From a virus, in IMG/VR virus record IMGVR_UViG_3300043427_001029, positions 1 to 37,870 of that record: a stretch of DNA of 37,870 nucleotides. One strand, written 5' to 3'. The translations under genes and the position numbers were made by a program. The first letter of the stretch is position 1. Each line of letters opens with the position of its first letter. Below are positions 144 through 19,682 of this stretch, piece by piece. The notes below the pieces were generated by a model. It had not been told where the DNA came from, made no database searches, and saw nothing but the letters and a program-made list of their open reading frames with translations.

Positions 144-497
144 ATGAATCCAAGTTCAGCGAAAGCGAAAGGTCGCCGTCTGCAACAGTGGGTGAGAGAT
201 AAACTTATTGAGATGCTTGAAGTTCATCCAGAAGATATCGAATCCCGTAGCATGGGAGCGGGTGGTGAGGATCTCATAATGGCTCGTGCTGCTAGGTTAA
301 AGTTCCCTCACAGCATTGAATGTAAAAACGTGGAGAAGCTAAATATATGGGATGCTTATGAGCAAGCATCTGCCAACTCGGGTGACTATGAACCTCTCGT
401 TGTTATTAAAAAGAATGGAAAAAAACCGCTAGCAGTGGTTGACGCAGAGTACTTCATACGTTTATTCGGAGACAAAAATGACGCTAGACCTTCATAA
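144..497 (+). CDS. PD-(D/E)xK-type endonuclease, Holliday-resolvase-like, 117 aa
   Basis: A small basic protein with the core of a PD-(D/E)xK nuclease: GGED with Asp43, followed after a strand by IECKN (Glu59, Lys61), the usual metal-binding and catalytic pair. A helix with RRLQQWVRDKL precedes the core, as in resolvase-like nucleases. It probably cuts or trims branched DNA, or acts as a repair nuclease, in the infected cell. The start is the ATG placed nine bases after GGAGG in the hairpin upstream. Its last 20 bases overlap the start of the next gene. The fold family is fairly safe; the substrate is not known. Confidence 0.65.
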   Translation: MNPSSAKAKGRRLQQWVRDKLIEMLEVHPEDIESRSMGAGGEDLIMARAARLKFPHSIECKNVEKLNIWDAYEQASANSGDYEPLVVIKKNGKKPLAVVDAEYFIRLFGDKNDARPS

Positions 498-1149
498 CTT
501 TTTTAAATTTTATGATGAGAATAATGATAATCATATAGCAGCAGTTCAATGGTTAGAGGATAACCTACCTGCTCAATTTTTAGACGACTCGGAAACAGAA
601 TGGATTGGGATGTTCAGGACCAAACCACCAACTCCTGCAGTTCTTGCTGTTCCATATTTTAATCAAGTAGATAACTATAGAGATGCACATAGAACTTGCA
701 ACTCTTCGTCATGTGCTATGTGTCTTGCATTCCTCAAACCAGGAAGCATCAAAGGTGATGATGAGTATGTCAAAAAAGTATTTGCGATTGGCGACACGAC
801 TGACCATGCGGTACAGACGAAAGTTCTCGCAGGTTATGGCGTTAAGTCTCACTTTAGTTATAATCTTTCTTTTGCTGACATTGATCGTAGCCTTGATGCT
901 GGGAAACCTGTTGTTATTGGTATCCTCCATAGGGGTTCTTTATCTGCTCCTACTGGTGGTCACATGTGTGTAGTCATTGGTAAGACACCAGATGGCAAAG
1001 GATATTATGTTAATGACCCATATGGTTCACTCAACGATAACTATACTGGTCCAGTAACAAATGGTAAGAAGACCATTTATACCAAAGCAGTTCTCAAGCA
1101 TCGCTGGTGCCCAGGTGGCAACGATGGTTGGGGTCGTATTTTTGATTGA
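478..1149 (+). CDS. C39-like papain-fold cysteine peptidase, lysis or virion associated, 223 aa
   Basis: The C-terminal two thirds look like a peptidase of the C39/papain fold. The Cys motif CNSSSCAMCLAFL holds the likely nucleophile (Cys74), GGHMCVVIG the His (162), and VNDPYG the Asp (180). Such domains cut peptide cross-links or leader peptides. The first 32 residues (DLHNFFKFYDE to WLEDNLP) are nearly repeated at the start of the next gene, a lysozyme, which suggests a common docking or targeting segment. I chose the ATG at 478 because it aligns with that paralogous start; the frame is open back to a TTG at 439. Substrate (peptidoglycan or protein) is inferred from context. Confidence 0.6.
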   Translation: MTLDLHNFFKFYDENNDNHIAAVQWLEDNLPAQFLDDSETEWIGMFRTKPPTPAVLAVPYFNQVDNYRDAHRTCNSSSCAMCLAFLKPGSIKGDDEYVKKVFAIGDTTDHAVQTKVLAGYGVKSHFSYNLSFADIDRSLDAGKPVVIGILHRGSLSAPTGGHMCVVIGKTPDGKGYYVNDPYGSLNDNYTGPVTNGKKTIYTKAVLKHRWCPGGNDGWGRIFD

Positions 1150-1167: not shown

Positions 1168-1839
1168 ATGGCAAGAATCGATTTACACAACTTCTTCAAA
1201 TTCTATGATGAGAAGAATGCTAACCATGTGAAAGCAGTTCAGTGGTTAGAAGATAACTTACCTGTCAAATATCTAGAAGATAATATTGATTGGGCGGAGA
1301 TCTATAGAGGAAAAAAGGGTAATGCGGCACCAGTATCAGCATCATCTGCTGCCGCTCCTGTAGTTGGTGGCGATGATGTTCCACAAATGGGCATTAAATT
1401 AGTTAAGGAATTTGAGGGATGCAGATTAAATGCATATCCAGATCCACTATCTGGTGGTTTACCAATCACGATTGGATGGGGTTCGACCAGAGATAAGAAT
1501 GGCAAACCATTCCACATGGGAGATAGTATTACTCAAGCAGAAGCAGATGAACTATTAATTGAAGAAGCAAAGCATCACTTTCTTCCAGCACTTCGTAAAA
1601 TTCCTCACTGGAATGAGATGTCTGATGGCAAAAGAGGTGCCCTACTTTCTTTTGCTTATAATCTTGGCGCTGGTTTTTATGGTGGTGATAATTTTAATAC
1701 TATCACTCGTGTTCTAAAAAATAAAGAATGGGATAAGGTGCCCGATGCGCTTTACCTCTACAGAAATCCTGGTTCAAATGTAGAAGCAGGACTAGCACGT
1801 AGGAGAAAAGCAGAAGGTGAAGCTTGGAAAAAAGGTTAA
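1168..1839 (+). CDS. T4-type lysozyme (glycoside hydrolase family 24) with N-terminal docking segment, 223 aa
   Basis: Hydrolyses the glycan of peptidoglycan. Residues 74-223 carry the GH24 signature: KEFEG with catalytic Glu83, AYPDP with Asp92, and ITIGWGS with Thr101, followed by the helical lobe with SFAYNLGAGF. The N-terminal 32 residues repeat the start of the preceding peptidase, and an Ala/Ser/Pro linker (about 51-70) joins the parts. There is no signal peptide, so export would need a holin or delivery on the virion. GGAG lies nine bases before the ATG. The layout suggests a baseplate-associated or endolysin-type enzyme working together with the upstream peptidase. Confidence 0.85.
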   Translation: MARIDLHNFFKFYDEKNANHVKAVQWLEDNLPVKYLEDNIDWAEIYRGKKGNAAPVSASSAAAPVVGGDDVPQMGIKLVKEFEGCRLNAYPDPLSGGLPITIGWGSTRDKNGKPFHMGDSITQAEADELLIEEAKHHFLPALRKIPHWNEMSDGKRGALLSFAYNLGAGFYGGDNFNTITRVLKNKEWDKVPDALYLYRNPGSNVEAGLARRRKAEGEAWKKG

Positions 1840-1855: not shown

Positions 1856-2209
1856 ATGGAAAACAACAAAAGAGAAAAATGTATGAGCACAATTATTAGG
1901 ATTAGTGTTTTGAGTTGGAGTGCTGCTCTTCTCACTGCTAGTTATGCTGGTCTTCTTGCTAAGATGGACCCTACATTTATTGCTACAGTATTCACTGCTG
2001 CTGCAGCAACCTTTGGAGTTGATACTTTGAAGAAGGGAGAGGATAAAGAAGATGCCGATAAACCCGCTGGAAGGAATCCAGAACCTGAATTCGTCGTCGA
2101 TACCCCAGCTCCAGTCGAGCCAACTATCGCCGCTACAGCAACCGAAGGTTGCCCAGAATGCGGTGCAGGGGATTCTCCCGACTATAGTAGAGCAACTACC
2201 GCCAGCTAA
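1856..2209 (+). CDS. Small membrane protein, holin-like position, 117 aa
   Basis: After a charged start the protein has a hydrophobic stretch (about residues 13-53) that could form one or two membrane helices, then a long acidic, Pro/Ala/Thr-rich tail. Its place right after the lysozyme would fit a holin, but there is no sequence proof. AAGGA precedes the ATG at 1856; ATG at 1883 is an alternative start. The last 158 bases are also read in another frame by the next gene, and the tail is of low complexity there. Confidence 0.5.
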   Translation: MENNKREKCMSTIIRISVLSWSAALLTASYAGLLAKMDPTFIATVFTAAAATFGVDTLKKGEDKEDADKPAGRNPEPEFVVDTPAPVEPTIAATATEGCPECGAGDSPDYSRATTAS

Positions 2210-2807
2210 AACTCAGGTTCCTGTTACCAATGGTTTGGCGCTTCCTGTATTTGAGGCGCCAAACCCTTCTATTAAATATCCTGTGATTAATGTACCAACA
2301 CAGGAAGAGTTTGATGCGGCTGTACGAGCAGAGAAACAAAAAGAACAGCAAGAGAAGGAAGAGAAAGAAAGAAAACTTCCTGATTCTCCACCACCAGTAA
2401 TGCCAGCAATTAATGCTGTTCAACCACAAGATAAATCAGAGTTAACTACTGACCAACCTACTATAGACAAACCTGTAACAGCGGAGATACAGGTGCCTAT
2501 CTTAGGAGCGGTTCCAATCCCCACAAACAAGGAAGTAGCACTCGCAGGCACCACAGCGATGGCAGCGACCGCAGCGGCGCTCCTAGGCAAGTCTGCCGTG
2601 GAATTTCTGTTGAAGTTCTTCAAACCAATTGCTAATCAAATTTGGATTCGTGGCAAGAAACTTCTATCCAAAGATTTAACTGATTATGAGTTACAACTAT
2701 TCTTTGCTTTTGAAAAAGAAAAAGAAATGAAAGCAGTTGCTAAAAAACTTAAGAAAGAATTTAAAGTTGAGAAGCAACGTCAGTATAAAGAAGCAAAGAA
2801 AAAATAA
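2052..2807 (+). CDS. Hypothetical protein with charged coiled-coil and membrane segment, 251 aa
   Basis: Not recognised by function. The N-terminus is rich in Ser, Gln and Pro. A Glu/Lys/Gln-rich stretch (about 90-108) should be helical. Residues 165-195 form an Ala-rich hydrophobic segment followed by a basic amphipathic region and a Lys-rich C-terminus ending KEAKKK. The layout recalls a phage structural or membrane-associated protein. The start overlaps the preceding gene by 158 bases in a different frame. The stop is directly adjacent to that of the convergent nuclease gene. Confidence 0.6.
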   Translation: MPINPLEGIQNLNSSSIPQLQSSQLSPLQQPKVAQNAVQGILPTIVEQLPPAKTQVPVTNGLALPVFEAPNPSIKYPVINVPTQEEFDAAVRAEKQKEQQEKEEKERKLPDSPPPVMPAINAVQPQDKSELTTDQPTIDKPVTAEIQVPILGAVPIPTNKEVALAGTTAMAATAAALLGKSAVEFLLKFFKPIANQIWIRGKKLLSKDLTDYELQLFFAFEKEKEMKAVAKKLKKEFKVEKQRQYKEAKKK

Positions 2808-3827: not shown

Positions 3828-3935
3828 TCACTTTTTCTTACCACCATTCTTTGCTTTTTTAGCAGTGGCATTACCTTGATTCTGTTTAGGTTTCTTGGCT
3901 GCTTTATTACTGCCTTTATTTTTTGACTTGGCCAT
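3828..3935 (-). CDS. Lysine-rich micro-protein, 35 aa
   Basis: Encodes MAKSKNKGSNKAAKKP then a Lys/Asn/Gly tail ending GGKKK; about 40 percent of residues are basic. It lies between two genes of the same run, six bases before the next ATG and overlapping the upstream gene by 20 bases. Such a chain should be disordered and could bind nucleic acid or another acidic polymer. A GATAAATA late-type motif on the minus strand (3960-3967) lies 25 bases upstream. Confidence 0.5.
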   Translation of the reverse strand: MAKSKNKGSNKAAKKPKQNQGNATAKKAKNGGKKK

Positions 3936-4509
3936 TATTTTGTGGCGCAGTTAACGTAGTATTTATCTGTGGATACCGCACAACTACATCCGAACATATC
4001 CTAGCGTAAGGAGAATCGTTGTGAAATGTTACACCAGATTTAATTGCTTCACCACATTTAAGTAATCTAACTAATTCAAAATCTAAACGTGCTTTATCTG
4101 CTTCTGCGTTCTGCCTTTTGATTTCTACTCTTGCTCTTTCTTTACATAATTCAGTTAATCCTCCATCTAATGGAAAATTAAATCCCATACTAACTCCACC
4201 ATTACCAGTGTATGATTGAAATGTTTGTGGATCTTTACTGCCATTCAGGTTACCTAATATGAATGGGGCAACACTCATAGTGGGCCCCTGACAACTAACC
4301 CCCGCTCCGTATGTATTAAGAGCATACGGCCCTTGTAAAACTTGGACCGCTTGGTTTGTAACGTTTCCAGTAGCACTAGCACTAGGGCCAGCAATATTAG
4401 TATTACTAGGAGCTGTTTGAGCCAGCACAGGCGATACATACAATCCTACTGCGTAAAGACAGATACCGAGTTTGTGGTAGATTGTTGTTCTGTTGTTCTG
4501 TCTATCCAT
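3916..4509 (-). CDS. Secreted protein with signal peptide and C-terminal helix, 197 aa
   Basis: The N-terminus has a signal peptide (about 12-30, cut near VLAQ). A Gly/Asn/Thr-rich region follows with NTNI, SASATGNVTNQAVQVLQGPY and CQGPTM, then a charged helix (about 115-145) and several Cys residues (78, 122, 152, 171 region) that could form disulfides. Secretion to the periplasm or outer membrane is likely. It is the last of three signal-bearing genes in a row, divergent from a probable outer-membrane barrel. The 64-base overlap with the preceding gene makes the start a little uncertain. Function unknown. Confidence 0.65.
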   Translation of the reverse strand: MDRQNNRTTIYHKLGICLYAVGLYVSPVLAQTAPSNTNIAGPSASATGNVTNQAVQVLQGPYALNTYGAGVSCQGPTMSVAPFILGNLNGSKDPQTFQSYTGNGGVSMGFNFPLDGGLTELCKERARVEIKRQNAEADKARLDFELVRLLKCGEAIKSGVTFHNDSPYARICSDVVVRYPQINTTLTAPQNNGQVKK

Positions 4510-4805
4510 GTTTCTTTTGCCACTCCAGGTCCGAGATAAGTTTCACTGAACTGGAAGGGAGCACCTTGAGTTTGGATAGTGTAATTTGCTCCTTGTTGTG
4601 GAGTGCCAGGAATGTTAATATTAGTTCCAGTCACAGTATATGATGTGCCAGTTGTATATTCAACTTGACGTATAGTTTCTACAATCTTTGTAGTTGTTTC
4701 TGTTGTCGCAGTAATAGTACCCCTAGTAAAATTAGGGACCACTGCTTCCGCTAGGGCAGATTGAGAAAACCCTAGCAGGAACAACCCCGCTAGGATATAT
4801 CTCAT
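4446..4805 (-). CDS. Secreted Thr-rich protein, paralogue of the next gene upstream, 119 aa
   Basis: A signal peptide (MRYILAGLFLLGFSQSALA) is followed by a Thr-rich mature part. Residues in the pattern SY-x-x-x-GTNI ... YTIQTQGAPFQFSETY align with GASYSASGTNI ... YDVNTAGQAFSFSETF of the gene upstream, so the two are paralogues. No catalytic motif is seen; the beta-rich, polar composition suggests a surface or fibre-like protein. ATGA-type overlap with its neighbour supports one operon. Confidence 0.65.
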   Translation of the reverse strand: MRYILAGLFLLGFSQSALAEAVVPNFTRGTITATTETTTKIVETIRQVEYTTGTSYTVTGTNINIPGTPQQGANYTIQTQGAPFQFSETYLGPGVAKETWIDRTTEQQSTTNSVSVFTQ

Positions 4806-5263
4806 TTAAATACGCTCAGTTCAACGCTACGTTGTCCTGTTGCTGTAGTTCCAGCACCACCAGCAGTTACAGTAGGAACACCAGTAGGTGATAATGTACC
4901 AGCGAGAGAACCCTTGTCCCCTGCTAACTGAGTAACACTATCCCCATAAAGGTTGGGAGAAGCAATAACTCCACCACTGACCGACTGAGTGGTGACTGGT
5001 GTATCAGCAGCATTGAAAGTTTCTGAGAAACTGAACGCTTGACCTGCTGTATTAACGTCGTAGCTTCCAGCACCATTTACCCCACCAAATGAGGTTGATT
5101 GAATATTTGTACCCGAAGCAGAATACGACGCCCCAATTCGAGTTGATTGTACCGCAGCACCCTGGACATTTAGTTGAACGGAATCAGTAATTCTAGATGT
5201 AATTTCAGCAGCACTTACAGGAGTAATAAAGAATAACGAAGAGATTAGAAGTAATCTTTTCAT
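4802..5263 (-). CDS. Secreted Gly/Thr/Ser-rich protein, 153 aa
   Basis: I start it at 5263, where MKRLLLISSLFFITPVSA forms a classical signal peptide; the frame is open 48 bases further upstream but that would bury the signal. The mature part is Gly/Ser/Thr-rich and paralogous to the following gene through the block GTNI ... FSFSETF. It ends RSVELSVFK. First gene of a three-gene secreted set. A CTAAATAC late-like motif lies upstream on the minus strand (5289-5296). Confidence 0.65.
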   Translation of the reverse strand: MKRLLLISSLFFITPVSAAEITSRITDSVQLNVQGAAVQSTRIGASYSASGTNIQSTSFGGVNGAGSYDVNTAGQAFSFSETFNAADTPVTTQSVSGGVIASPNLYGDSVTQLAGDKGSLAGTLSPTGVPTVTAGGAGTTATGQRSVELSVFK

Positions 5264-5311
5264 TGTTCTTTGGCTTGAATAACCAAATGTATTTAGTAAA
5301 AAAAATAACAT

Positions 5312-5453
5312 AACCTAAATAGTGGTAACTGCAAATGATATTGCTTCACTGGTCTGAATCTATATCTCCAGTCTCCGTGACTCGGTGAGTATTTTACTTC
5401 TAAAACATACTTCGGTCTGTTTTTGTTAGTCCTCATCTAATCACGGATTTTCT
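5312..5453. other. Divergent intergenic region, 142 bp
   Basis: Separates the minus-strand secreted genes from the barrel gene on the plus strand. It holds CTAAATAC (minus, 5289-5296) and CTAAATAG (plus, 5314-5321), which resemble weakened late boxes. No convincing -35/-10 pair was found. Confidence 0.3.
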
Positions 5454-7784
5454 ATGTCTACTACACAGAAGGCGCTGGCTGCAGCGTCTGTGCTTCTTTT
5501 TGGAGTGCCAACAGCAGCATTGTCTGATACAATAACTGGAACTGATTTCGAGGGGGGATCTCTATCTGGATGGAATACGGGATCTCAACCAGGAAATCTA
5601 ACCAACGGAACAATCACTGGTAATGGAACTGGTGTTACTGCAATCAACGGATCGGTAACATTTAGTGCGCCTTCTCATGGCGCGGTGGGTAGTCCCACAC
5701 TCCCAGATGGATCACCAAATCCATACCATGCCCCAGCAACAACACCAACAACTTGGACATTCTCTCCATATGGAACTGCTGGTGCTGCATTACAACCAAC
5801 AGGTTCAACAACATTCGATGCAGCAACTTCTGCATTAGGTCTTACATCTGCAGAAAATCAAGCAATCAAAACAAAACTTCAGCAAGACCAACAGGCATCA
5901 GGTCTAGGAAATCCCAATCCAACTAATGCCGCATGGTTAACTCAAAGCGTAAATCTTGATGCTGGAAAAGTTTATACGATGTCATGGAACTACATTGGAA
6001 CTGATTATGTTCCATTCAACGATGGTTCTATTACATCTCTTGTTTATCAGGGAACTGGTTCTACTCCAGTTGTAAATGTCAACAACTATGTTCAGAACTA
6101 TGCGTTACTTGGATTCACTAACCCAGGTACGGGAGATTACTCTACAGGAACTTATGGTTCAACTGGATGGCAGAATTCAACATATCAAGTTGATGTAACT
6201 GGTGCTTATCTATTAGGATTTGCAGTATTTAATCTTGGAGATACTGCACTATCACCAGTTCTTTTAGTTGATAGTCAACCAGGAACCACATTAGCAAATG
6301 GACAACCATTTGGTGCTGTTGCTCCCAACAATCCAAATGCTCCTACAATAAATCCAACACCACCAACACCTCCAACTCCAACACCACCACCTGCCCCAAC
6401 AGTAACTGGAACATCTACGACAGATCAGGTATCAACATCTTCGTCAACTTCAAATGTTGTAGTAACAGCTCAGGTTACTTATAATGTAAGCAATCTTGAC
6501 AATAATGGATATGGAGTAGTTCAGAACTATACTGATACTATAGAAACTACAACTCCAGTTACTACAACAACTACAACTACAACTCCAGTTACAACGACCA
6601 CATATTCTGATGGTTCTACAACCACCTCAAACGGAACGCCAGTAGTAACCACAACAACATCAAACGGATCTTCTACATCACAAGTAACTGCAACAGTTCT
6701 TAATTCTACTTCAACCACTACTCCTTCTATAGGATATAGCACAGCACAATCAACTACGTTACCACAAACATATAAAAATGATTATGCGTTTGCTTCATCT
6801 GAGAATGGTGGAAAACAAAAAGTAAATGTTCATGTAGCAACTGAAATCACAACTCCATTAGTTACCACTGTAACCGCAACTCCAGTAACTACGATTGTAT
6901 ATGCTGATGGAACTACAACTACAACTGAAGGAACACCAGTTGTAACTTATGTGTCTTCTGAAAGTGTAGATGTCGTCCATACTTACAAGGATTACTTTGG
7001 TCGTATAGATCAACTAGAAGTTCTTGATAATATCAGCAGTGCTATCAATGGTCTGTTAGATCATGAACCAATCACCAATCATAAGAAGAGATTTAGAGTA
7101 TTCGAAAACAATCGCTTCATGCATTCATATAATGCTGATGGTTATCAAGCAAAATCTACAGTATTTGGTGGTGGATTTGAATATGACATCACCAAAGGAT
7201 GGACTGCTGGAGCACAATACAATGATCTCTATACTGAAATGATAGGTGTGGATAGCATCTCACACCTCAAGAGACAGCATGTTGGTATATTCAATAGCTT
7301 CCATGGCAGAGATGTAGCACTTGTTACAAATGCTGGTGCTTCTAGAGACAAATATGATGTTGCTAGAACCGTTGAATATATGTTTGGTAACTGGGCAAAT
7401 GTAGAAGGAACACAATGGTGGGTTCATAACAGACTATATCTGAATAACTCTGGTTGGATCAAACCATTCTTAGGTTATACTATTTCTAACATTCGAAGAA
7501 ATGCTTATACTGAAACTGGTTCTCCAGAATCAGCAAGAAGTGTCGAAGCGTTCAACCAGACCACACATGTTGGTGAAGCTGGTTTGAAACTAGAAACTCG
7601 CTTTGGTGGTAAGAAGAAAGATGTAATTGGCGTGAGTGTTGAAGGTGCCTATTCTACAGACAACTCATATAGTGCCACTGCTTCTATTGATTACAAACAA
7701 GCACTATATGTAGAGGGAACTCATTCTGTTACTGATGGTTTGACAAGCAATTCCGTTGCCGCCAAAGTTAAGTTCAGATTTTGA
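5454..7784 (+). CDS. Exported protein with Thr-rich repeats and probable C-terminal outer-membrane barrel, 776 aa
   Basis: A signal peptide (about 1-24) leads a polar Gly/Thr/Ser/Asn passenger to residue 298. A Pro/Thr linker at 300-320 follows, then two related Thr-rich units (about 360-420 and 460-505) sharing TPVTT-x-x-Y-x-DG-TTTT-x-GTPVVT. From about 535 to the end, alternating aromatic and polar strands (GGGFEYDITKGWTAGAQYND, PFLGYTISNIRRNAY, AGLKLETRFGG) end in KVKFRF, the C-terminal Phe typical of proteins inserted by the BAM complex. The architecture is that of an autotransporter-like outer-membrane protein. A role in changing the host surface, adsorption or lysis is conjecture; it could also be a virion protein. 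Confidence 0.65.
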   Translation: MSTTQKALAAASVLLFGVPTAALSDTITGTDFEGGSLSGWNTGSQPGNLTNGTITGNGTGVTAINGSVTFSAPSHGAVGSPTLPDGSPNPYHAPATTPTTWTFSPYGTAGAALQPTGSTTFDAATSALGLTSAENQAIKTKLQQDQQASGLGNPNPTNAAWLTQSVNLDAGKVYTMSWNYIGTDYVPFNDGSITSLVYQGTGSTPVVNVNNYVQNYALLGFTNPGTGDYSTGTYGSTGWQNSTYQVDVTGAYLLGFAVFNLGDTALSPVLLVDSQPGTTLANGQPFGAVAPNNPNAPTINPTPPTPPTPTPPPAPTVTGTSTTDQVSTSSSTSNVVVTAQVTYNVSNLDNNGYGVVQNYTDTIETTTPVTTTTTTTTPVTTTTYSDGSTTTSNGTPVVTTTTSNGSSTSQVTATVLNSTSTTTPSIGYSTAQSTTLPQTYKNDYAFASSENGGKQKVNVHVATEITTPLVTTVTATPVTTIVYADGTTTTTEGTPVVTYVSSESVDVVHTYKDYFGRIDQLEVLDNISSAINGLLDHEPITNHKKRFRVFENNRFMHSYNADGYQAKSTVFGGGFEYDITKGWTAGAQYNDLYTEMIGVDSISHLKRQHVGIFNSFHGRDVALVTNAGASRDKYDVARTVEYMFGNWANVEGTQWWVHNRLYLNNSGWIKPFLGYTISNIRRNAYTETGSPESARSVEAFNQTTHVGEAGLKLETRFGGKKKDVIGVSVEGAYSTDNSYSATASIDYKQALYVEGTHSVTDGLTSNSVAAKVKFRF

Positions 7785-7922: not shown

Positions 7923-8552
7923 ATGCAACAATTCTTTACTGTAGCCCTGCCCCTTCTGGCATCGGTTACAACCAATGTGGCAACACTGCCGATCTTTCCT
8001 CCCTTGACGACGCCTCCAGCGCCGTTTTCTGTTATTAAGGAGTTTGAAACGACAGCGACCCGAGAGGTTGCTCCCGAAAAGCCAAAAGAGAAAAGGCTAA
8101 TTTGTAAAGGGTGTTCAGAACATGAACAACTTGCTGTGGATTATTTCCAAGAGCAAGGAATTAAAGACAGAAACGCCCTTGCTACTATCCTGGGCAACAT
8201 TAAGCAGGAATCTATGTTCGTGCCTAATATTTGTGAAGGTGGTAGTAGGACTCAGTACCATCACTGCGGTCGTGGTTATGGTCTGATCCAATGGACATCT
8301 GCCGATCGTTATTATGGATTGGGTGATTTCGCTAAGAAGTTTGGTGGTTCACCATCAACACTTCCAACGCAACTTCGTTATCTTACGAATGAAGTTCAAT
8401 GGAAACGAATCGAAGACAGAATGAAAACTCCTGGTAAGTCTATTGATCGTTACATGAACTATGCGTACAGTTGGATTGGTTGGGGTATTCATGGTGCCCG
8501 TACACATTATGCCTATGAATATGCCAACAAACTGATTACGGTAGAAGTTTAA
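7923..8552 (+). CDS. Signal-anchored phage-tail-type lysozyme, 209 aa
   Basis: Residues 1-22 form a hydrophobic signal or anchor, then a Pro-rich and charged linker with a CKGC pair (61-64). From about 66 to 209 the protein matches the phage tail lysozyme (Phage_lysozyme2) type: ILGNIKQESMF with probable catalytic Glu96, and GYGLIQWTSADRY, the strand typical of lytic glycosidases. It should cut peptidoglycan, with the signal suggesting export through the host Sec system rather than a holin. It has its own strong promoter and leader. Together with the two upstream hydrolases it makes a third wall-degrading enzyme in 8.5 kb. Confidence 0.75.
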   Translation: MQQFFTVALPLLASVTTNVATLPIFPPLTTPPAPFSVIKEFETTATREVAPEKPKEKRLICKGCSEHEQLAVDYFQEQGIKDRNALATILGNIKQESMFVPNICEGGSRTQYHHCGRGYGLIQWTSADRYYGLGDFAKKFGGSPSTLPTQLRYLTNEVQWKRIEDRMKTPGKSIDRYMNYAYSWIGWGIHGARTHYAYEYANKLITVEV

Positions 8553-10333: not shown

Positions 10334-11836
10334 ATGAAAACATTTAAGCATTTGATGCTTGCCACTGCTGCTATCAGCGCCACTGCTCCTGCTGTGGCTG
10401 CTGATCTGAATATTGCTGCTGTTAATCAGTATGCAACTTCTGAGCAGGTTACAAGCGTCACTCAATTGTCTGATGTCCGACCTTCGGATTGGGCATACCA
10501 GGCACTTACCAATCTCGTAGATCGTTATGGTTGCGTAGCTGGTTATCCTAACGGCACTTATGGTGGTGGTAAGGCAATGACTCGTTATGAGGCAGCCGCA
10601 CTTCTGAATGCTTGCCTTGATCGTGTAACTGAAGTGACTGACGAACTCCAACGTCTTTCAAAAGAGTTTGCGGATGAACTTCTTGTCATTCGTGGTCGTG
10701 TTGCCAAACTGGAAACTCAAGTTGGTCAACTCCAAGCAACTCAGTTCTCTACCACAACTAAACTCAAGGGCGAAGTTAACTTCATTCTTGGTGGTGTAGA
10801 AGGTGCTCGTCTTGCTAACAATACTAATGTTGGTAATACTGCATTTAACTACGATCTTCGTCTGAACTTTGACACTTCGTTTACTGGTAAAGATCTGCTT
10901 CGTACTCGTCTGCGTACTGGTAACTTCTCCAGTCAACCATTCGGTTCTTCTTCGTCTCTGTTCAAACTGGACAAAGCAGAAACTTATGCAAACGCCGTAC
11001 AACTTGATCGTTTGTACTACAGCTTCCCTGGTCTTACCAAAGGTATGACCCTGACTGCTGGTGCTCTGGTTCGTAACACAGAGATGGCATGGGTTCCTTC
11101 TGCTTATAAGTCTGACATTCTTGACTTCTTCCAAGTTGCTGGTGCTCCTGGCGTTTATAACAAAGCAACTGGTTCTGGTTTCGGTGCTCAATGGGCACAA
11201 CCTACCAAAAAAGGTAAGGGTGGTTTCGTTGCTGGTGTGAACTATGTTGCTCAGAATGGTAGTGATAGTTCCAAGGGTCAGTTCGATGAGACTGGTGCTC
11301 TGAATACTCTGGCACAAATCGGTTATCGTGCTCCTCAGTATGGCGTTGCATTCGGTTATCGTTATGGCACTGAAGGCACTCGTGTTCGTACCTTCAATGC
11401 TATCAATGGTGGTTCTGGTGCTCTTGCTGCTGGTCAAACCTCTAACAGCTATGCTATCAATGCTTACTGGCAACCTAAGAAGTCTGGTATCGTACCTTCG
11501 ATCTCTGGTGCTTATGGTTGGACCGATGTGAGTAAGAATGCTCTAGGTCGTACCACTCCTACTGGTGCTACCAACTCGCAGACATGGTTTGCTGGTCTTC
11601 AGTGGAGCGATGTATTCGCCAAGGGTAACGCTGCTGGTTTCGCTATTGGCGCCCCTGGCAATGCTGCTTCTCTTGCTGATAATCAGAAAGCTATCATGTG
11701 GGAAACCTTCTATCGTTACAAGGTTAGCGACAATATCAGCATCACTCCTTCGATCTTCTATGTTTCCAACAACCAAGGATTCAAGAACGCTTCGGATAAC
11801 TATGGTGGTGTAATCCAAACTAAATTCACTTTCTGA
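10334..11836 (+). CDS. Cyanobacterial-type SLH porin (outer membrane), 500 aa
   Basis: A signal peptide (1-22, AVAA) leads a mature protein with an SLH domain (about 45-95: LSDVRPSDWAYQALTNLVDR, YPNGTYGGGKAMTRYEAAAL), a short coiled coil (96-135) and a barrel (about 140-500) ending KFTF with a terminal Phe. This is the order of the major porins of cyanobacteria (SomA/SomB-type, also called iron-uptake porins), where the SLH part binds peptidoglycan or its attached polysaccharide and the barrel opens the outer membrane. Codon use is richer in GC than in nearby phage genes, fitting capture from a host. It is followed six bases later by an inner-membrane transporter. Family call is strong; the solute is unknown. 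Confidence 0.92.
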   Translation: MKTFKHLMLATAAISATAPAVAADLNIAAVNQYATSEQVTSVTQLSDVRPSDWAYQALTNLVDRYGCVAGYPNGTYGGGKAMTRYEAAALLNACLDRVTEVTDELQRLSKEFADELLVIRGRVAKLETQVGQLQATQFSTTTKLKGEVNFILGGVEGARLANNTNVGNTAFNYDLRLNFDTSFTGKDLLRTRLRTGNFSSQPFGSSSSLFKLDKAETYANAVQLDRLYYSFPGLTKGMTLTAGALVRNTEMAWVPSAYKSDILDFFQVAGAPGVYNKATGSGFGAQWAQPTKKGKGGFVAGVNYVAQNGSDSSKGQFDETGALNTLAQIGYRAPQYGVAFGYRYGTEGTRVRTFNAINGGSGALAAGQTSNSYAINAYWQPKKSGIVPSISGAYGWTDVSKNALGRTTPTGATNSQTWFAGLQWSDVFAKGNAAGFAIGAPGNAASLADNQKAIMWETFYRYKVSDNISITPSIFYVSNNQGFKNASDNYGGVIQTKFTF

Positions 11837-11842: not shown

Positions 11843-12883
11843 ATGGATCTACTAATGGGTATTTGGGAGAAAGAACTTTTTCTCCCCTACATCATCGGCA
11901 TCATGATTGTCGGTGGTCTCGTAAAACAATACGGAGTGCTTAACGAAGTATTCGTAGCACTTCGCAAAATCTTCAAGTCAAATAGACTTGTAGTTGCTGC
12001 TACTGCTTTAGCTGGTGGTGTTCTACCCATTGAAGGGCGTGTCGTTATGTCGGCACCCCTTCTGGATTCCATCGCTTCAGACAAAGCACAATCTCGTTCT
12101 AAGTTTGGTATCGTAGATTATCTTTCTACTCACCACTATTACTGGTGGTCACCACTAGAAAAGACTGTTGTGCTTCCTATGGCAGCACTCGGTATGTCAT
12201 ATACAACTTATATGAGTTATACCATTGTTCCTCTTGCAATCGTTTTGGCATTCGCAGGTGTATTCATCTTCAAGTATGTCAAGGAGACTGATGTTGAGAT
12301 TGTGGAGGAAACTCGCACCTTCAGTTGGAATCGTCTGCTGAAAGGTTGGGGGCCTATTGTTGCTACGATGTGGTTCCTGGTATGCTATGGTGATCCAGAC
12401 ATGCCATATCTCTTCTCTGTTTGGTTCACAGGTCTTGCTGCTTACTATTCATTCATCTGCAATGATTGGAAGTGGGGTCGTTATATCAAGTGGAAGTTTG
12501 CTGGTTTTGCTGCTCTGGTGCTTGCTCTTGCTGCCATCATGGGAGAACTGAAAGAACCAGTCATGGAGTATTTGAAACTGACTGCAGCTCAAGGTTCCGC
12601 TGCTCTTGGCATTATCTCTGTGGTTGGTTTCCTTGCTGCGTTTGCTATGGGATCCTCTAGCAAGTATGCTGGTATCGTTGCTCTTCTTGCTAAGGCATTC
12701 GGTCCTGGATACTTGACATGGTTCCTCTGTGTGGAGTATGCTGGGTACATCATCTCTCCAATGCACAAGTGTCTGCTGATTGGTCAGCAATACTTTGGCA
12801 CTCCTATCAAAACTTACTATAAAGTTCTTGGTATGCTGATTGCTGCATTGGTTGGATACGGAGCACTGACTCTAGTGTTCTAG
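11843..12883 (+). CDS. DUF401-type integral membrane transporter, 346 aa
   Basis: A very hydrophobic protein with about ten membrane segments. LAGGVLPIEGRVVMSAPLLDS (58-76) and SPMHKCLLIGQQYF (305-318) match my memory of two signature re-entrant regions of DUF401, a family within the ion-transporter superfamily whose substrates are mostly unknown. It sits six bases behind the porin with ATATGG before its start, so the two are probably co-translated. No terminator is seen between them. The closest alternative is another carboxylate or amino-acid transporter of the same superfamily. Confidence 0.7.
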   Translation: MDLLMGIWEKELFLPYIIGIMIVGGLVKQYGVLNEVFVALRKIFKSNRLVVAATALAGGVLPIEGRVVMSAPLLDSIASDKAQSRSKFGIVDYLSTHHYYWWSPLEKTVVLPMAALGMSYTTYMSYTIVPLAIVLAFAGVFIFKYVKETDVEIVEETRTFSWNRLLKGWGPIVATMWFLVCYGDPDMPYLFSVWFTGLAAYYSFICNDWKWGRYIKWKFAGFAALVLALAAIMGELKEPVMEYLKLTAAQGSAALGIISVVGFLAAFAMGSSSKYAGIVALLAKAFGPGYLTWFLCVEYAGYIISPMHKCLLIGQQYFGTPIKTYYKVLGMLIAALVGYGALTLVF

Positions 12884-14188: not shown

Positions 14189-14764
14189 ATGTTGACACAA
14201 GGACTAGTTGAAACTGAATATGAAGATCCTGGATTTGAGATTACTCATCTGTCATTCAGGAGAAAAGAATCTTCACAACTCTATGGTGGTCCTGTACATT
14301 ACTATGTCGGCAACATCGTATTTCGTTTGAATAACGAGGATGCCAAAGGTCGCATGGAATACATTATGAGAGAGAATGAGAGGGTTCGTGTAGCACCAGA
14401 TGAAGAGTTACATGATAAGTATTACGATGGTCTTCACTTTAAGTTTGACAGAGAAAAAGAAGAAGTAAATGAAGACGGTGAAAAGTTTTATAAGCTTGAC
14501 ATCATCAACAAAGAAGGTATCAAAGATGAAGATGTATTCATCTATGGGTATCGTCGCAACATGGATCCCATGCATGATTTCGTAGAATACATTGAGAAGT
14601 TTGATTGTTATCGAATGCACGAATACTTCCAAGACACTCCAGTGGTTCGTGGTATAATTCAGTATCTCCAAGACATGAAAGATGGTAAACCTAATCCGAG
14701 TCGCACGGTCTATCACGAACAGTTTCTCAACACGCTTACAAACCTTTGTTGGTGGTGGGATTGA
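14189..14764 (+). CDS. Hypothetical protein, 191 aa
   Basis: Acidic, Tyr- and Trp-rich soluble protein ending NLCWWWD. GAGAGG lies eight bases before the ATG at 14189. Alternating strands early and helices later suggest a compact domain; no family recognised. Its TGA overlaps the ATG of the sulfotransferase. Confidence 0.65.
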   Translation: MLTQGLVETEYEDPGFEITHLSFRRKESSQLYGGPVHYYVGNIVFRLNNEDAKGRMEYIMRENERVRVAPDEELHDKYYDGLHFKFDREKEEVNEDGEKFYKLDIINKEGIKDEDVFIYGYRRNMDPMHDFVEYIEKFDCYRMHEYFQDTPVVRGIIQYLQDMKDGKPNPSRTVYHEQFLNTLTNLCWWWD

Positions 14765-15552
14765 TGAGTAAACTTTATTTTTTATCTGGGTTACCGAGAA
14801 CAGGAACTACTTTATTGTCGTCACTTCTAAATCAAAATCCCCAAATACATTGTACATCTACTAGTGGATTGTTGGATTTTTTATCTGGAGTAGATTATGT
14901 TTATGGAGAAATATCTCAAAGATATAAAACTATTGATGGTGCTCAATTAAAAAATATTTTCAAATCGGTTGTAGAATCTTATTATAATCATATTGATCGC
15001 CCAATTATTATAGATAAATGGCGAGGATGGATATCAAATATTCCTCAAATCAAAGAAGTTATAAATCCTTCTCCTAAAATTATTTGTACATACAGACCAG
15101 TCGAAGAAATAATAACTTCTTTTTTATACTTGTTGGAAAAAGATAAAAATAATTTTGTTGACCAAGAATTATTCAAAAGAAAAATACCAGTCACGAATGA
15201 AAATAGATCTAAATTTTTATGGAAAGAAGGAGTAGTAGGAGAATCATATGAAATGTTTAAAACATCTATAGATAAAAAAAATATTTTGTATATTTCTTAT
15301 AATAATTTAATTGACCAACCTGAAGAAACGATGACTAAAATATATGATTATCTTTCAGAATCATTCTATACACATGACGTTAATCATATAAAAAGTGATA
15401 CTAATGATAATGATAAATATTGGGAAATAAAAAATTTACATAGCATAAGATCTACATTAAAACGGGATTATAAAAATCCAGAGGATTATTTGACAACCAA
15501 ATCTATAAATTATTATAAACAATTTAACGATATATTTGATTATGTTAACTAA
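14764..15552 (+). CDS. Sulfotransferase-family protein, 262 aa
   Basis: The 5'-phosphosulfate loop is seen at the start (FLSGLPRTGTTLLSSLLNQNP) and the 3'-phosphate site near residue 110 (TYRPVEEIITSF), both marks of PAPS-dependent sulfotransferases. It would move sulfate from PAPS to a hydroxyl or amine of a glycan, lipid or small molecule in the host. GC content is far lower than in the flanking genes, a sign of separate origin. It overlaps the gene before (TGATG) and the oxygenase after. Substrate unknown. Confidence 0.75.
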   Translation: MSKLYFLSGLPRTGTTLLSSLLNQNPQIHCTSTSGLLDFLSGVDYVYGEISQRYKTIDGAQLKNIFKSVVESYYNHIDRPIIIDKWRGWISNIPQIKEVINPSPKIICTYRPVEEIITSFLYLLEKDKNNFVDQELFKRKIPVTNENRSKFLWKEGVVGESYEMFKTSIDKKNILYISYNNLIDQPEETMTKIYDYLSESFYTHDVNHIKSDTNDNDKYWEIKNLHSIRSTLKRDYKNPEDYLTTKSINYYKQFNDIFDYVN

Positions 15553-16183
15553 TATAATTGACATTCTTCCAAACCCAATAGCTTTTTTTGAATGTGATTT
15601 TCATGAAGAAGTGAAACGAATATCTTTTGATGTTACTACTAAACTTAATGAAACAAAAAATATTCATTCCAATAATTTAAAACATTATGGGAATGATATT
15701 GGAGAATCCATTTTATACAGAGAGGAATTTTTACCTTTTATGGAATGGTGTGTCTCGTGTGCAAAAGAATATGTGATTGATATTTTGGGATATAAGATAT
15801 TAGATGATATAATAGTGACTGATAGTTGGATAAATTGTTGTGAAAGTGGAGGGTTTCAATACCCACATTATCATGCAAATTCTTTTATTTCTGGAACTTA
15901 TTATATAAACTTTGAAGAGAATGTACATTCTCCGTTATTGTTTAGAAATCCAAAATCAATTGAGTCTGGTAATCAACCAGTAATTCAACTTGAGAAAAAT
16001 ATTCCAACAAAATATAATAGTGATTCGGTTGTACTTCCAGAATCTGGCAAACTAATTCTTTGGGAATCTCACTTGAGTCATGGTTATAATATTAATCCCG
16101 CAGATAATAGAATGAGTCTTTCTATGAATTTTATTCCAAATTATATTACTAGTGGTAAATATGGATTCAGAATACAAAACTAG
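15542..16183 (+). CDS. Putative 2OG-Fe(II) oxygenase (TIGR02466-like), 213 aa
   Basis: The core HYHANSFISGTYYINF gives an HxH/N-type metal site with the following strand. LILWESHLSHGYNIN supplies the distal His, and NRMSLSMNF the Arg and strand expected for 2-oxoglutarate binding. This matches the phage/cyanobacterial TIGR02466 group as I recall it. It is very AT-rich and overlaps the sulfotransferase by 11 bases. The substrate is unknown. Confidence 0.7.
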   Translation: MLTNIIDILPNPIAFFECDFHEEVKRISFDVTTKLNETKNIHSNNLKHYGNDIGESILYREEFLPFMEWCVSCAKEYVIDILGYKILDDIIVTDSWINCCESGGFQYPHYHANSFISGTYYINFEENVHSPLLFRNPKSIESGNQPVIQLEKNIPTKYNSDSVVLPESGKLILWESHLSHGYNINPADNRMSLSMNFIPNYITSGKYGFRIQN

Positions 16184-16316
16184 AGTATGCTCTAAATGTA
16201 ATACTCAATATCCCCTTGACAAGGACCACTACCAAGTGGTAAAATACTTTCGTACAGGATTCTCTTACTACTGCAATGAGTGTAACAAACCAAAGCCGCG
16301 TGAAGACCATTCTTGA
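16161..16316 (+). CDS. Small zinc-finger protein, 51 aa
   Basis: Encodes CSKCNTQYPLDKDHYQ, then about 20 residues, then CNECNKPKPRED. The two CxxC pairs resemble the zinc knuckle found ahead of HNH nucleases, here standing alone. It overlaps the genes on both sides, and the downstream promoter lies inside it. It is too short for a length filter but the Cys pattern makes it convincing. Confidence 0.65.
   Translation: MDSEYKTRVCSKCNTQYPLDKDHYQVVKYFRTGFSYYCNECNKPKPREDHS
16216..16245 (+). promoter_or_regulatory. Sigma70-type promoter with inverted repeats, inside the zinc-finger gene
   Basis: TTGACA (16216-16221), 18 bp, TAAAAT (16240-16245). The -35 is inside CCTTGACAAGG, and the spacer holds ACCACT/AGTGGT (16225-16240). 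It would drive the gene at 16276 and possibly the halogenase operon. Confidence 0.6.
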
Positions 16317-16539
16317 TCGTTTCCCATATCGTTACGTTCAAGTAGGCACCTTAGAAATCAATGGCAAACCTGATTGCCGTATTCAAAAAGTAGATTCTTA
16401 CACAGGTCGATATCGTGATATGTATCTGTGTGATAATGAGATGCAGTTCATGACTGCTATTGAAGATTTTGAGTATACGAAATGGCTTGATCCAGATACA
16501 GTTCCATGTTACATTAAAGGAGAAGATGACGATGAATGA
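16276..16539 (+). CDS. Hypothetical protein, 87 aa
   Basis: Basic N-terminus, then beta-rich middle (RYVQVGTLEINGKPDCRIQKV) and acidic end. No family recognised. The start overlaps the zinc-finger gene by 41 bases; an ATG start is the only good choice. It is followed by an overlapping small gene. Confidence 0.6.
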   Translation: MSVTNQSRVKTILDRFPYRYVQVGTLEINGKPDCRIQKVDSYTGRYRDMYLCDNEMQFMTAIEDFEYTKWLDPDTVPCYIKGEDDDE

Positions 16540-16819
16540 CTCAGTTAAATATCAATTAGAAAGAGCAGTTGATGCTCTACGCACGGCAGTAAAACTTGGT
16601 GCATCGGTTGAAGATGCTTATCTGCTTCGTAATATCGTAGAAACTATTAATACCATCGAAGGTTGGCAAACCTCTTCTAGGTATAAGTATAACATTTCTA
16701 AAGAAACTATTGATGATTCTATTAAATTTACCATGAGTGGTTACGATCCCGATTATAATATCACAATTAATTCTGGAGCGGATGAAATGCCCTATCGCTA
16801 CTATGGTATTTCTTCGTGA
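16532..16819 (+). CDS. Hypothetical helical protein, 95 aa
   Basis: I start it at the ATG nine bases after AAAGGAG (16532) rather than an upstream frame-open ATG. The first 45 residues are helical, then a polar tail. It overlaps the stop before it and the GTG of the halogenase after it, so expression is likely coupled. Function unknown. Confidence 0.6.
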   Translation: MNDSVKYQLERAVDALRTAVKLGASVEDAYLLRNIVETINTIEGWQTSSRYKYNISKETIDDSIKFTMSGYDPDYNITINSGADEMPYRYYGISS

Positions 16820-18057
16820 AAATCGCTGTAATTGGAGTTGGTACTGCTGGATGTTTATCGTTGTGTCATTTGTTGACATACCTCCCATCATATTGGGAAG
16901 TGATATCCGTACATGATCCATCAACTCCAATTGTTGGTATTGGAGAAAGCACTCTTCCTAGATTTCCATTCATGTTATTTGCTGGCACCAGATTTCATTA
17001 TGCGACCGACAAGCATGAATTGGATGCTACCATAAAACAAGGAGTAAAATTTGTTAACTGGAGAAAGGAAGATATATTTCATACGTTTGCATCAAATACT
17101 TATGGAATACATTTCAATACATTTAACCTAAAGGATTTTGTTCTATCTAGATTGCCTAAATTGTGGAAGGATAGATTCTCTTCTATTACAGGAAATGTGG
17201 AAGACTTAATTAATACCGATAAAGGAGTTGATGTTATTGTAGACAATGTAGTTCATGAATTCGACTACGTAGTTGATTGTCGAGGGTTTCCAGATAATTA
17301 TGAGGATTGTCAAGAAAGCAATGTTGTTCCAGTAAATCATGCTTTAATAAATGTTATAGATAAACCAGGCGATTGGGATTGGACATATCATTATGCCCAT
17401 CCCAATGGTTGGATGTTTGGAATTCCTTTGTCTACTAGACAAGGATGGGGATACTTATATAATGATACGATATCAACAAAAGAAGAAGGTATCGATTGGT
17501 TATCAGAACATTTTAAAACACCGAAAGATCAATTAAATATCAGAGAATATAGTTGGAAACCATTCTTTTCCAATAAGATGATAGATGGACGTATTATCAA
17601 AAATGGTAATCGCATTTCTTTCATGGAACCTTTACAAGCATTATCTTTTGGAATCTATGACGCAGTGAATTTAGCATGTGTTGAATATGTGCAGGGAAGG
17701 GAAACAGAAGAAAGAGCAGAATTATTTTACAGGCAGATTATAGAAACTACCGAGGCAACTATTGCTTTCCATTATCATGGTGGATCAATATTTAATACTG
17801 AATTTTGGAAAATGGCATCGGTAAAATGCTCACGTTATGTCAGTTCTGTTAAAAATATGGAAAATCTTTTTGATAGACTTAGAGAATATAGAACTGCATC
17901 CAACAATAATTTGTTTATGTATCTAATGTCTCCTCAGGAAAGAGAAACTTTGAAGATGGGAGTGTTTGATCCACAATCAATCTATTTTATTGATGAAGCT
18001 TTTGGGTATAACTATACTAAACAAGGCACTCAAGAAAATTACTATTACATAACATGA
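16816..18057 (+). CDS. Flavin-dependent (tryptophan-type) halogenase-like protein, 413 aa
   Basis: A FAD-binding GVGTAG (7-12) leads the chain. IVGIGESTLPRF (about 39-50) and TIKQGVKFVNW (72-82, Lys74 at the place of the catalytic Lys of PrnA/RebH) follow. The usual WxWxIP is changed to GWMFGIPLSTR (about 197-207), with the second Trp replaced by Phe. FMEPLQALSFG matches the EPLES element only in part. The fold is of this family, but the changes may mean a different substrate or another oxidation. GTG start overlapping the preceding stop; it overlaps the next gene as ATGA. Confidence 0.75.
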   Translation: MKIAVIGVGTAGCLSLCHLLTYLPSYWEVISVHDPSTPIVGIGESTLPRFPFMLFAGTRFHYATDKHELDATIKQGVKFVNWRKEDIFHTFASNTYGIHFNTFNLKDFVLSRLPKLWKDRFSSITGNVEDLINTDKGVDVIVDNVVHEFDYVVDCRGFPDNYEDCQESNVVPVNHALINVIDKPGDWDWTYHYAHPNGWMFGIPLSTRQGWGYLYNDTISTKEEGIDWLSEHFKTPKDQLNIREYSWKPFFSNKMIDGRIIKNGNRISFMEPLQALSFGIYDAVNLACVEYVQGRETEERAELFYRQIIETTEATIAFHYHGGSIFNTEFWKMASVKCSRYVSSVKNMENLFDRLREYRTASNNNLFMYLMSPQERETLKMGVFDPQSIYFIDEAFGYNYTKQGTQENYYYIT

Positions 18058-19377: not shown

Positions 19378-19564
19378 CATTAAAAGCGCCCTGGTGGAGT
19401 CAAATTTGACCCTATTATGCCCGTGATGGAGACACGTTAACAACCCTGGTCGGGAACCCCCTCGATGAGTTTCCAATTTCTCTAAAAAATTGGTGGTGCG
19501 GATGGGACTCTCTCCCGCCTGGTTTCTTGCCTCCAGTCAAAGGGCAAGTGGCGAGCCGAGCACG
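19378..19564 (+). other. Structured non-coding stretch before tRNA-Met promoter
   Basis: No ORF of note. Hairpins: the palindrome GTCAAATTTGAC (19399-19410); CGTG/CACG (19422-19436); CCAATTT/AAATTGG (19473-19493, seven-base loop); GGGA/TCCC (19504-19516); CTTGCC/GGCAAG (19526-19548). No T-tract terminator is seen. Could be a 3' leader-trailer of the halogenase operon or a separate RNA. Confidence 0.35.
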
Positions 19565-19607
19565 GGGGGATTGACAACCCCCACCCCTCTCATATATAAT
19601 AGAGGGG
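19565..19607 (+). promoter_or_regulatory. tRNA promoter with both boxes inside inverted repeats
   Basis: TTGACA (19571-19576), 18 bp, TATAAT (19595-19600). GGGGG (19565-19569) and CCCCC (19578-19582) flank the -35. CCCCTCT (19584-19590) and AGAGGGG (19601-19607) flank the -10 with a ten-base gap, as at 12883-12924. Confidence 0.8.
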
Positions 19608-19612
19608 TTGAA

Positions 19613-19682
19613 GCGGGGAGGTGTAGTGGTCGCACAGGAGTCTCATAAGCTCCAGGCAGTTGGTTCAATTCCAACCCCCGCT
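19613..19682 (+). tRNA. tRNA with CAT anticodon (Met type)
   Basis: Acceptor GCGGGGA/CCCCCGC with one mismatch, short D-arm, anticodon stem GGAGT/GCTCC around CTCATAA (anticodon CAT), T-arm GGTTCAATTCC. At 70 bases it is short and less regular than the others. Met or Ile2 cannot be told apart. Confidence 0.8.

What the first reader, a model, noticed from the sequence alone, without database searches (positions are those of the whole stretch)
3916..7784. Cluster of secreted proteins divergent from an autotransporter-like outer-membrane protein
Three signal-peptide proteins in one overlapping run lie back to back with a 776-residue exported protein that has Thr-rich repeats and a C-terminal barrel ending in Phe. 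Together they look like a system acting on or through the host outer membrane. I know of no described phage system with this layout.
Basis: partly seen in the sequence, partly recalled or inferred. Interest (0 to 1): 0.75.

Follow-up and report, generated by a model that had tools for sequence, protein, structure and literature searches.

The report
Cyanophage outer-membrane module near lysis genes
A virus of freshwater cyanobacteria carries a widely conserved set of exported proteins next to its cell-bursting genes, plus a surface-anchored protein with interchangeable heads; the set may be how viruses of these ocean and lake bacteria break the host's outer membrane, but this is untested.

Summary
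The four exported proteins are real, but they are two units, not one system. (1) The minus-strand trio (3916-5311) is a conserved cyanophage module (T4-GC 237/236/235; PHROG 564/650/848). The second and third genes overlap in a fixed frame in 176 of 177 loci. The third is found in T4-like, T7-like and siphovirus-like cyanophages. A small membrane protein and a Pro-rich membrane protein lie nearby; in T7-like phages the four genes sit before the terminase, roughly where T7 keeps its holin and spanins. The third gene is homologous to a cyanobacterial secreted protein that also sits beside paired secreted paralogues. (2) The 776-residue protein is autotransporter-like: signal peptide, swappable head (four classes), Thr-rich stalk, conserved C-terminal barrel domain. 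In relatives its gene usually lies between endolysin and holin-like genes; the back-to-back layout occurs only in this phage. Cyanophages are a published group of 'spanin-less' phages. I propose that the trio plus the Pro-rich protein do the outer-membrane step of lysis with a topology unlike Rz/Rz1. That function is inferred (confidence 0.42); no expression, localisation or virion evidence was available. Main rival: a host-derived surface structure.

The parts
4802..5311 (-). GC237 (phrog_564): exported beta-rich protein, signal peptide MKRLLLISSLFFITPVSA; likely true start at 5263; paralogue of GC236
   Evidence: phrog_564 1.7e-30; T4-GC 237 by homology and order in S-SM1, P-SSM2, P-HM1; paralogy to GC236 by hhalign 97.3%, E 1.7e-11
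4446..4805 (-). GC236 (phrog_650, DUF6322): exported beta-rich protein ending SVFTQ
   Evidence: PF19847 5.6e-14, phrog_650 3.2e-30; homologues in T4-like, T7-like and MED4-184 phages
3916..4509 (-). GC235 (phrog_848/1755): exported protein with four invariant Cys, amphipathic strands and a long helix; overlaps GC236 by 64 bp in another frame
   Evidence: phrog_848 1.8e-53; 462 phage records; alignment of 51; model pLDDT 58.6; host homologue hhalign 97.7%, E 2.1e-12
5454..5525 (+). signal peptide of the barrel protein
   Evidence: crude filter, cleavage after ALS; conserved N terminus in relatives whose heads differ
5526..6338 (+). head domain, class I of four interchangeable classes (boundary approximate)
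   Evidence: weak NF038132 match 2.1e-5, below the curated cut-off
6339..6971 (+). Pro- then Thr-rich repeat stalk of variable length (boundary approximate)
   Evidence: sequence; repeats in relatives; modelled as long beta, block pLDDT 68-86 over residues 311-420
6972..7784 (+). C-terminal barrel domain ending in Phe
   Evidence: PF03797 8e-11; 14-sequence alignment, mean column identity 76%
439..1149 (+). C39-peptidase-like endolysin, first gene of the lysis cassette
   Evidence: phrog_10051 endolysin 4e-75; relatives annotated C39 peptidase or endolysin
1168..1839 (+). lysozyme
   Evidence: PF00959 2.3e-22
1856..2209 (+). HOL: small holin-like membrane protein
   Evidence: phrog_21865/721/2714, shared with a T7-like cyanophage; two hydrophobic segments at a lax cut-off; holin function inferred
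2052..2807 (+). PRO: Pro-rich arm, one C-terminal membrane segment, Lys-rich tail (T4-GC 234-like); overlaps HOL by 158 bp
   Evidence: phrog_9426 2.1e-4 and phrog_570 0.086 in the window; session HMM 1e-97, but the window protein was a seed; topology statistics
7923..8552 (+). phage-tail-lysozyme-domain protein with a hydrophobic N terminus, downstream neighbour of the barrel gene
   Evidence: PF18013 7.5e-16, phrog_512 2.6e-67

Best explanation
The trio GC237-GC236-GC235, with the neighbouring Pro-rich membrane protein (PRO) and small holin-like protein (HOL), is a cyanophage envelope-breaching module made for lysis. Proposed mechanism: HOL or another holin opens the inner membrane, the C39/lysozyme endolysins cut peptidoglycan, and then PRO (arm outside, membrane segment, basic tail inside) meets an outer-membrane assembly built from GC235 hairpins with the secreted paralogues GC236/GC237, spanning the periplasm and disrupting the outer membrane. 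It would work like a spanin but with a different build (N-out/C-in inner-membrane arm; outer-membrane protein instead of a lipoprotein). The barrel protein is a separate accessory encoded in the same lysis region in freshwater relatives: an autotransporter-like anchor that shows a swappable head on the infected cell. Shown: export signals, conservation, gene order, overlap frame, paralogy, homology of GC235 to a host protein. Inferred: topology of PRO, membrane insertion and oligomerisation of GC235, timing, and the lysis function.
For: Shared by tail types that share few virion parts: GC235 and GC236 in T4-like, T7-like and siphovirus-like cyanophages. Linkage: GC236 directly upstream on the same strand in 177 of 177 loci with room, overlapping in 176 of 177, one frame offset in all (209 loci hold GC235; 32 lacked room). 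HOL and PRO both in 9 of 9 podovirus, 17 of 17 marine-myovirus and 19 of 32 freshwater-like loci with 2.5 kb on both sides; 0 hits among 16194 reversed ORFs. In T7-like loci the order is PRO-HOL-GC236-GC235, with maturase B downstream in 12 of 13 loci; T7's own order (17.5 holin, 18, 18.5/18.7 spanins, 19) is recalled. PRO: one membrane segment in 62 of 70, Pro fraction before it 0.16 (median), net charge after it +10. GC235: four invariant Cys and two strands with alternating hydrophobicity. Endolysin genes and HOL/PRO stand together in the window and in DSL-LC03. Kongari et al. 2018 list 20 Prochlorococcus/Synechococcus phages among 91 without identifiable spanins and name an N-out/C-in protein and an OMP as possible unseen spanin types (PMC6139136, section 15 read); 11 of the 12 of those 20 that I could check carry at least one trio gene (Syn5 does not).
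Against: No functional, expression or localisation data. Syn5 lacks the module, and no hit was found in the parts examined of S-SZBM1 (149 of 178 kb), S-CREM2 (49 of 175 kb) and S-CREM1 (50 of 178 kb), so it is not needed for all cyanophage lysis. In marine myoviruses the trio faces PRO/HOL (35 of 37 loci) and is not seen beside endolysin genes. PRO has no recognisable signal to export a 100-200-residue N-terminal arm. HOL shows two hydrophobic segments in only 27 of 61. The GC235 model is weak (pLDDT 58.6). GC235 has a cellular homologue in cyanobacteria beside other secreted paralogues, which fits a surface structure at least as well.
Confidence: 0.42

Rival explanations
1. Captured host surface system: GC235 is an outer-membrane export or anchoring part and GC236/GC237 are paralogous extracellular subunits; the phage builds or modifies a surface layer on the infected cell, for example to block superinfection or re-adsorption. 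It would work like curli or other fibre systems without being homologous.
For: A cyanobacterial homologue of GC235 sits with paralogous secreted proteins: hhalign GC235 vs host 97.7%, E 2.1e-12; host A vs host B 96.4%, E 1.3e-9; phage GC236 vs GC237 97.3%, E 1.7e-11; six close host loci have two such genes directly upstream, and larger-genome cyanobacteria have one or two short secreted neighbours. Beta-rich, Thr/Ser/Gly-rich sequences.
Against: Phage GC236/GC237 do not match host A/B by profile (1.3%, 0.1%, 0.4%). Presence in small lytic podovirus genomes next to HOL/PRO suggests a more basic role. No curli or known fibre family matched.
Confidence: 0.33
2. Virion components, for example decorations or host-binding parts, with signal-peptide-like N termini that do not export them.
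For: Not excluded: virion tables of trio-carrying phages (S-SM1, S-SCSM1, S-TIM4) are in supplements that I could not read.
Against: Signal peptides throughout, invariant Cys, sharing across myo-, podo- and siphovirus-like phages, no match to a structural PHROG. The virion lists that I could read (S-CREM2, S-SZBM1) come from phages in which no trio was found, so they do not test it.
Confidence: 0.12
3. For the barrel protein: a superinfection-exclusion or adhesion device rather than a lysis accessory; variable heads bind cell-surface sugars or receptors on the infected cell or its neighbours.
For: One anchor, four unrelated head classes and a repeat stalk of variable length, the pattern of surface-exposed parts under diversifying selection; several other OMP-like genes in these phages.
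Against: Position between endolysin and holin-like genes in most relatives suggests late action; no binding data.
Confidence: 0.45

Closest known systems
Two-component spanins (Rz/Rz1; T7 18.5/18.7)
   Same: Overlapping genes in different frames, similar place before the large terminase in T7-like phages, envelope proteins beside holin-like genes
   Different: No lipoprotein, no N-terminal anchor on the trio; the membrane protein has a C-terminal segment; three secreted parts in myoviruses
T4-GC 234/235/236/237 (numbers as annotated in S-SM1, P-SSM2, P-HM1) and PHROG 570/848/650/564
   Same: These are the same gene families
   Different: Catalogued as hypotheticals; I found no published link between them, across tail types, or to the host family
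Classical (type Va) autotransporters
   Same: Signal peptide, N-terminal passenger, C-terminal PF03797-matching domain ending in Phe
   Different: Phage-encoded in a lysis region; heads swapped between relatives; Thr-rich stalk; barrel fold not confirmed
Trimeric autotransporter adhesins (YadA)
   Same: Head-stalk-anchor plan
   Different: Anchor domain is about 270 residues and matches PF03797; no trimeric-adhesin anchor match
Cyanobacterial GC235-like secreted-protein loci
   Same: GC235-family member next to paired secreted paralogues
   Different: Cellular, function unknown; the paired secreted proteins are not detectably homologous to phage GC236/GC237

Membership tests
Two-component spanin | o-spanin is a lipoprotein with a lipobox | tested here: not met
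   Lipobox-like pattern in 6 of 229 GC235, 0 of 218 GC236, 0 of 129 GC237 and 0 of 70 PRO
Two-component spanin | i-spanin is an N-in/C-out protein with an N-terminal membrane anchor | tested here: not met
   PRO has its hydrophobic segment at 0.63 of its length (median) and a +10 tail; GC235/236/237 have none after residue 40 (0 of 70, 0 of 70, 0 of 61). Computed hydropathy only
Two-component spanin | overlapping or adjacent genes near holin/endolysin | tested here: met
   Overlap in 176 of 177; HOL/PRO nearby; endolysins nearby in freshwater phages
Two-component spanin | disrupts the outer membrane at lysis | not testable with these tools
   needs a mutant
Type Va autotransporter | Sec signal peptide | tested here: met
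   crude filter
Type Va autotransporter | C-terminal PF03797 beta-domain ending in an aromatic residue | tested here: met
   8.1e-11, 42.6 bits against a cut-off of 26; KFRF end
Type Va autotransporter | 12-stranded barrel with a pore helix | tested here: inconclusive
   Model shows a helix 518-535 and about 12 strands after it, but pLDDT is mostly under 50 there
Type Va autotransporter | surface display of the passenger | not testable with these tools
   needs localisation
Trimeric autotransporter adhesin | YadA-type anchor domain | tested here: not met
   No such Pfam match; PF03797 instead
Curli / functional amyloid secretion | curlin repeats or CsgG homologue | tested here: not met
   No Pfam or NCBIfam match
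Virion structural protein | detected in virions | not testable with these tools
   Readable lists come from phages in which no trio was found

The most novel reading that the evidence does not exclude
The trio plus PRO is a new type of outer-membrane disruption system, not homologous to Rz/Rz1, evolved from a cyanobacterial surface-protein locus and shared across unrelated tail types; it would explain how 'spanin-less' marine cyanophages open the outer membrane.
Probability: 0.33. Interest if true: 0.85.

Novelty: new variant of a known kind. Interest (0 to 1): 0.62.

Why it matters
How cyanophages break the outer membrane is an open question: a survey found no spanins in 20 Prochlorococcus/Synechococcus phages and guessed that the membrane might be fragile (PMC6139136). 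A conserved envelope module in hundreds of cyanophage records, with a cellular homologue, gives a concrete target for deletion in T7-like cyanophages. The freshwater barrel protein shows phages putting swappable heads on an outer-membrane anchor from within their lysis region.

Tried and rejected
Whole-system reading (trio plus barrel as one machine): rejected, because the divergent layout is seen only in the window phage. Spanin membership: rejected on lipobox and topology; 'works like a spanin' kept. Syn5 gp55-gp58 looked like the module by size and place, and gp58 is annotated structural; an HMM search of all Syn5 ORFs at E 10 gave no hit, so it is not the trio. Virion test: S-CREM2 and S-SZBM1 have readable virion tables but no trio in the parts examined; S-SCSM1 carries the trio, but its virion list is in a supplement and its GenBank notes mark only some proteins. 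PDB sequence search: no match for GC235 or the barrel. Structure comparison of the GC235 model: best Z 4.1, unrelated entries, no conclusion. The barrel scan of genome contigs found no relative, and six cyanobacterial genomes gave none by protein, though one has a different PF03797 protein; origin of the barrel unresolved. GC236/GC237 against host A/B: no match. Label check: I first took the 'plasmid stability' gene of S-SM1 for HOL; coordinates show that HOL is its neighbour (T4-GC 218).

Limits: hhalign E-values are pairwise, and the aligned stretches include signal peptides and low-complexity sequence. GC236-GC235 overlap was measured to the start of the HMM domain, so lengths are approximate. 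In 10 of 64 podovirus loci the listed order of GC236 and GC235 is reversed because stop-to-stop frames were used. HMM seeds include the window proteins. One search used a wrong frame for one GC235 seed; it was corrected before any count.
Full report
What is there. The window is a 37,870-base IMG/VR virus record from a T4-like cyanophage close to the freshwater phages DSL-LC03 and DSL-LC02; it carries psbA. All four encode proteins with signal-peptide-like N termini; a crude filter passes 12 of 69 non-nested ORFs.

The trio is a known-but-unexplained cyanophage gene set. 4802-5311, 4446-4805 and 3916-4509 match phrog_564, phrog_650 and phrog_848/1755, all of unknown function, and correspond to T4-GC 237, 236 and 235 in S-SM1, P-SSM2 and P-HM1. 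By tblastn at E 1e-5 they are found in 165, 162 and 462 of 50,697 phage records; with a close relative as query and E up to 10, GC235 again gives 462 records, 461 of them named Synechococcus, Prochlorococcus, cyanophage, marine, uncultured or Tiamatvirus and one a marginal hit (E 9). GC235 and GC236 also occur in T7-like phages (KBS-P-1A, P-SSP3, P-SCSP1q, P-SSP7) and in siphovirus-like MED4-184; GC237 is in myoviruses and MED4-184 but in none of 57 podovirus loci with room. GC236 and GC237 are paralogues.

Linkage. Among 209 IMG/VR loci that hold GC235, GC236 lies directly upstream on the same strand in 177 of 177 with room, overlaps GC235's domain start in 176 of 177, and always with the same frame offset; GC237 is on the same strand in 88 of 88 myovirus loci with room. 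A small membrane protein (HOL) and a Pro-rich protein with one C-terminal hydrophobic segment and a basic tail (PRO; T4-GC 234 in S-SM1) lie nearby: both in 9 of 9 podovirus, 17 of 17 marine and 19 of 32 freshwater-like loci with 2.5 kb on each side. No reversed ORF of 16,194 matched the HMMs. In podoviruses the order is PRO-HOL-GC236-GC235, then maturase B in 12 of 13 loci.

What the proteins look like. GC235: four invariant Cys among 51 aligned sequences, two strands with alternating hydrophobic positions, and a long helix in a weak model (pLDDT 58.6). None of the trio has a second hydrophobic segment, and lipobox-like patterns are rare or absent. PRO: one segment in 62 of 70 representatives, median Pro fraction 0.16 before it and net charge +10 after it, consistent with an arm outside and tail inside, though nothing shows how the arm would be exported.

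A cellular relative. A search of 151 genomes of one picocyanobacterial family with phrog_848 rang in 2: Cyanobium usitatum, and a genome (G072) whose contig looks like a T7-like phage (terminase-like gene, PRO, HOL). With the Cyanobium protein as query, 11 of 151 rang (G072 included); with a six-sequence profile, 7 of 244 across the phylum. GC235 and this host family are homologous by profile (97.7%, E 2.1e-12). In the six close loci two secreted proteins lie directly upstream, as in phages, and they are paralogues, but these are not detectably homologous to GC236/GC237. In three larger-genome cyanobacteria other short secreted proteins, tandem paralogues in one, lie beside it.

The barrel protein. 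PF03797 at 8e-11. Sixteen IMG/VR loci and DSL-LC02/LC03 share the C-terminal domain (14 aligned, 76% mean column identity) and the signal peptide, but the heads fall into four unrelated classes: I window, L094, L100; II L096, L097, L098, L101, DSL-LC02, DSL-LC03; III L095, L099, L103, L108; IV L106, L107; three records (L102, L104, L105) are open at the 5' end and one (L109) holds only part of the barrel. Thr-rich repeats of variable length link head and barrel. Gene order: the lysozyme gene is the next detected marker upstream in 11 records (L094-L099, L101, L106, L107, DSL-LC02, DSL-LC03), absent in L103 and L108; HOL is the next detected marker downstream in 13 (L094, L096-L099, L102, L104-L107, L109, DSL-LC02, DSL-LC03). 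In the window the C39-lysozyme-HOL-PRO cassette stands at 439-2807 and the barrel gene lies beyond the trio. Full-length prediction was poor (pLDDT 42.5): the order helix then about a dozen strands fits an autotransporter domain but is not evidence by itself. The head has a sub-threshold match to a secreted family and none to tail proteins.

Mechanism. Being shared by three tail types argues against a virion role and for a host-envelope task; the T7-like position and the HOL/PRO/endolysin neighbours point to lysis. Kongari et al. 2018 (section 15 read in full; other passages) list 20 Prochlorococcus/Synechococcus phages among 91 with no identifiable spanin and note that an N-out/C-in membrane protein and an OMP could serve as unseen spanin types. 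Of those 20 I could check 12: P-HM1, P-SSM2, P-SSM7, Syn1, Syn33, S-RSM4 (printed there, I take it, as SRS-M4), S-ShM2, S-SM1, S-SM2, S-SSM7 and Syn19 carry at least one trio gene; Syn5 does not; 8 were not examined. P-SSP7, listed there under 'Cyanobacteria', carries PRO-HOL-GC236-GC235. Against this: absence in Syn5, opposed orientation in marine myoviruses, no export signal on PRO, and a host homologue that suggests a surface structure. I put the lysis reading at 0.42, the surface-structure reading at 0.33 and the virion reading at 0.12.

Literature. Searches gave no paper on the trio's function; listings were seen for all, passages or sections for PMC3037559, PMC2784084, PMC10575957, PMC4646655, PMC9860041, PMC9146016, PMC10665884, PMC10611076, PMC6224464, PMC9602691, PMC9964418 and PMC6139136. 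The main text of PMC3037559 does not mention T4-GC 235-237 by number.

Noticed in passing
window 10334-11836: SLH + OprB porin (PF04966 9.5e-13, PF00395 2.9e-7), 76% identical to a porin of phage S-SRM01 and up to 67% to cellular picocyanobacterial-type porins: a phage-borne cyanobacterial-type outer-membrane porin next to a DUF401 membrane protein (11843-12883).
   Followed up: partly
window 14746-25309: Two tryptophan-halogenase-like genes (16816-18057, 23873-25309), 2OG-Fe(II) oxygenases and a sulfotransferase-like gene, hinting at phage-directed modification chemistry.
   Followed up: no
L282 10375-11298 (S-SCSM1): GC235 is present (E 1.6e-74) but unannotated in the deposited genome, probably because it overlaps GC236; depositors elsewhere label GC237 'OMP1 protein'.
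   Followed up: partly
L278 5923-6544 (P-SSP7, GU071093): GC235 is split over two frames in this record; a frameshift or sequencing error, not resolved.
   Followed up: no
L002 460-831 and 6172-6687 (DSL-LC02): Two further small exported or barrel-like proteins near the lysis region, suggesting that freshwater cyanophages carry several outer-membrane proteins.
   Followed up: no
L273 (genome G072): A picocyanobacterial genome record holds a T7-like phage contig (terminase-like gene, PRO, HOL, GC235): contamination or a prophage.
   Followed up: no
L266-L271: Uncharacterised picocyanobacterial loci of secreted proteins (paralogues often ending F-x-Q-x-F, Cys-rich small proteins, long Ser/Asn/Ala-rich proteins) around the GC235 homologue; function unknown.
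   Followed up: partly
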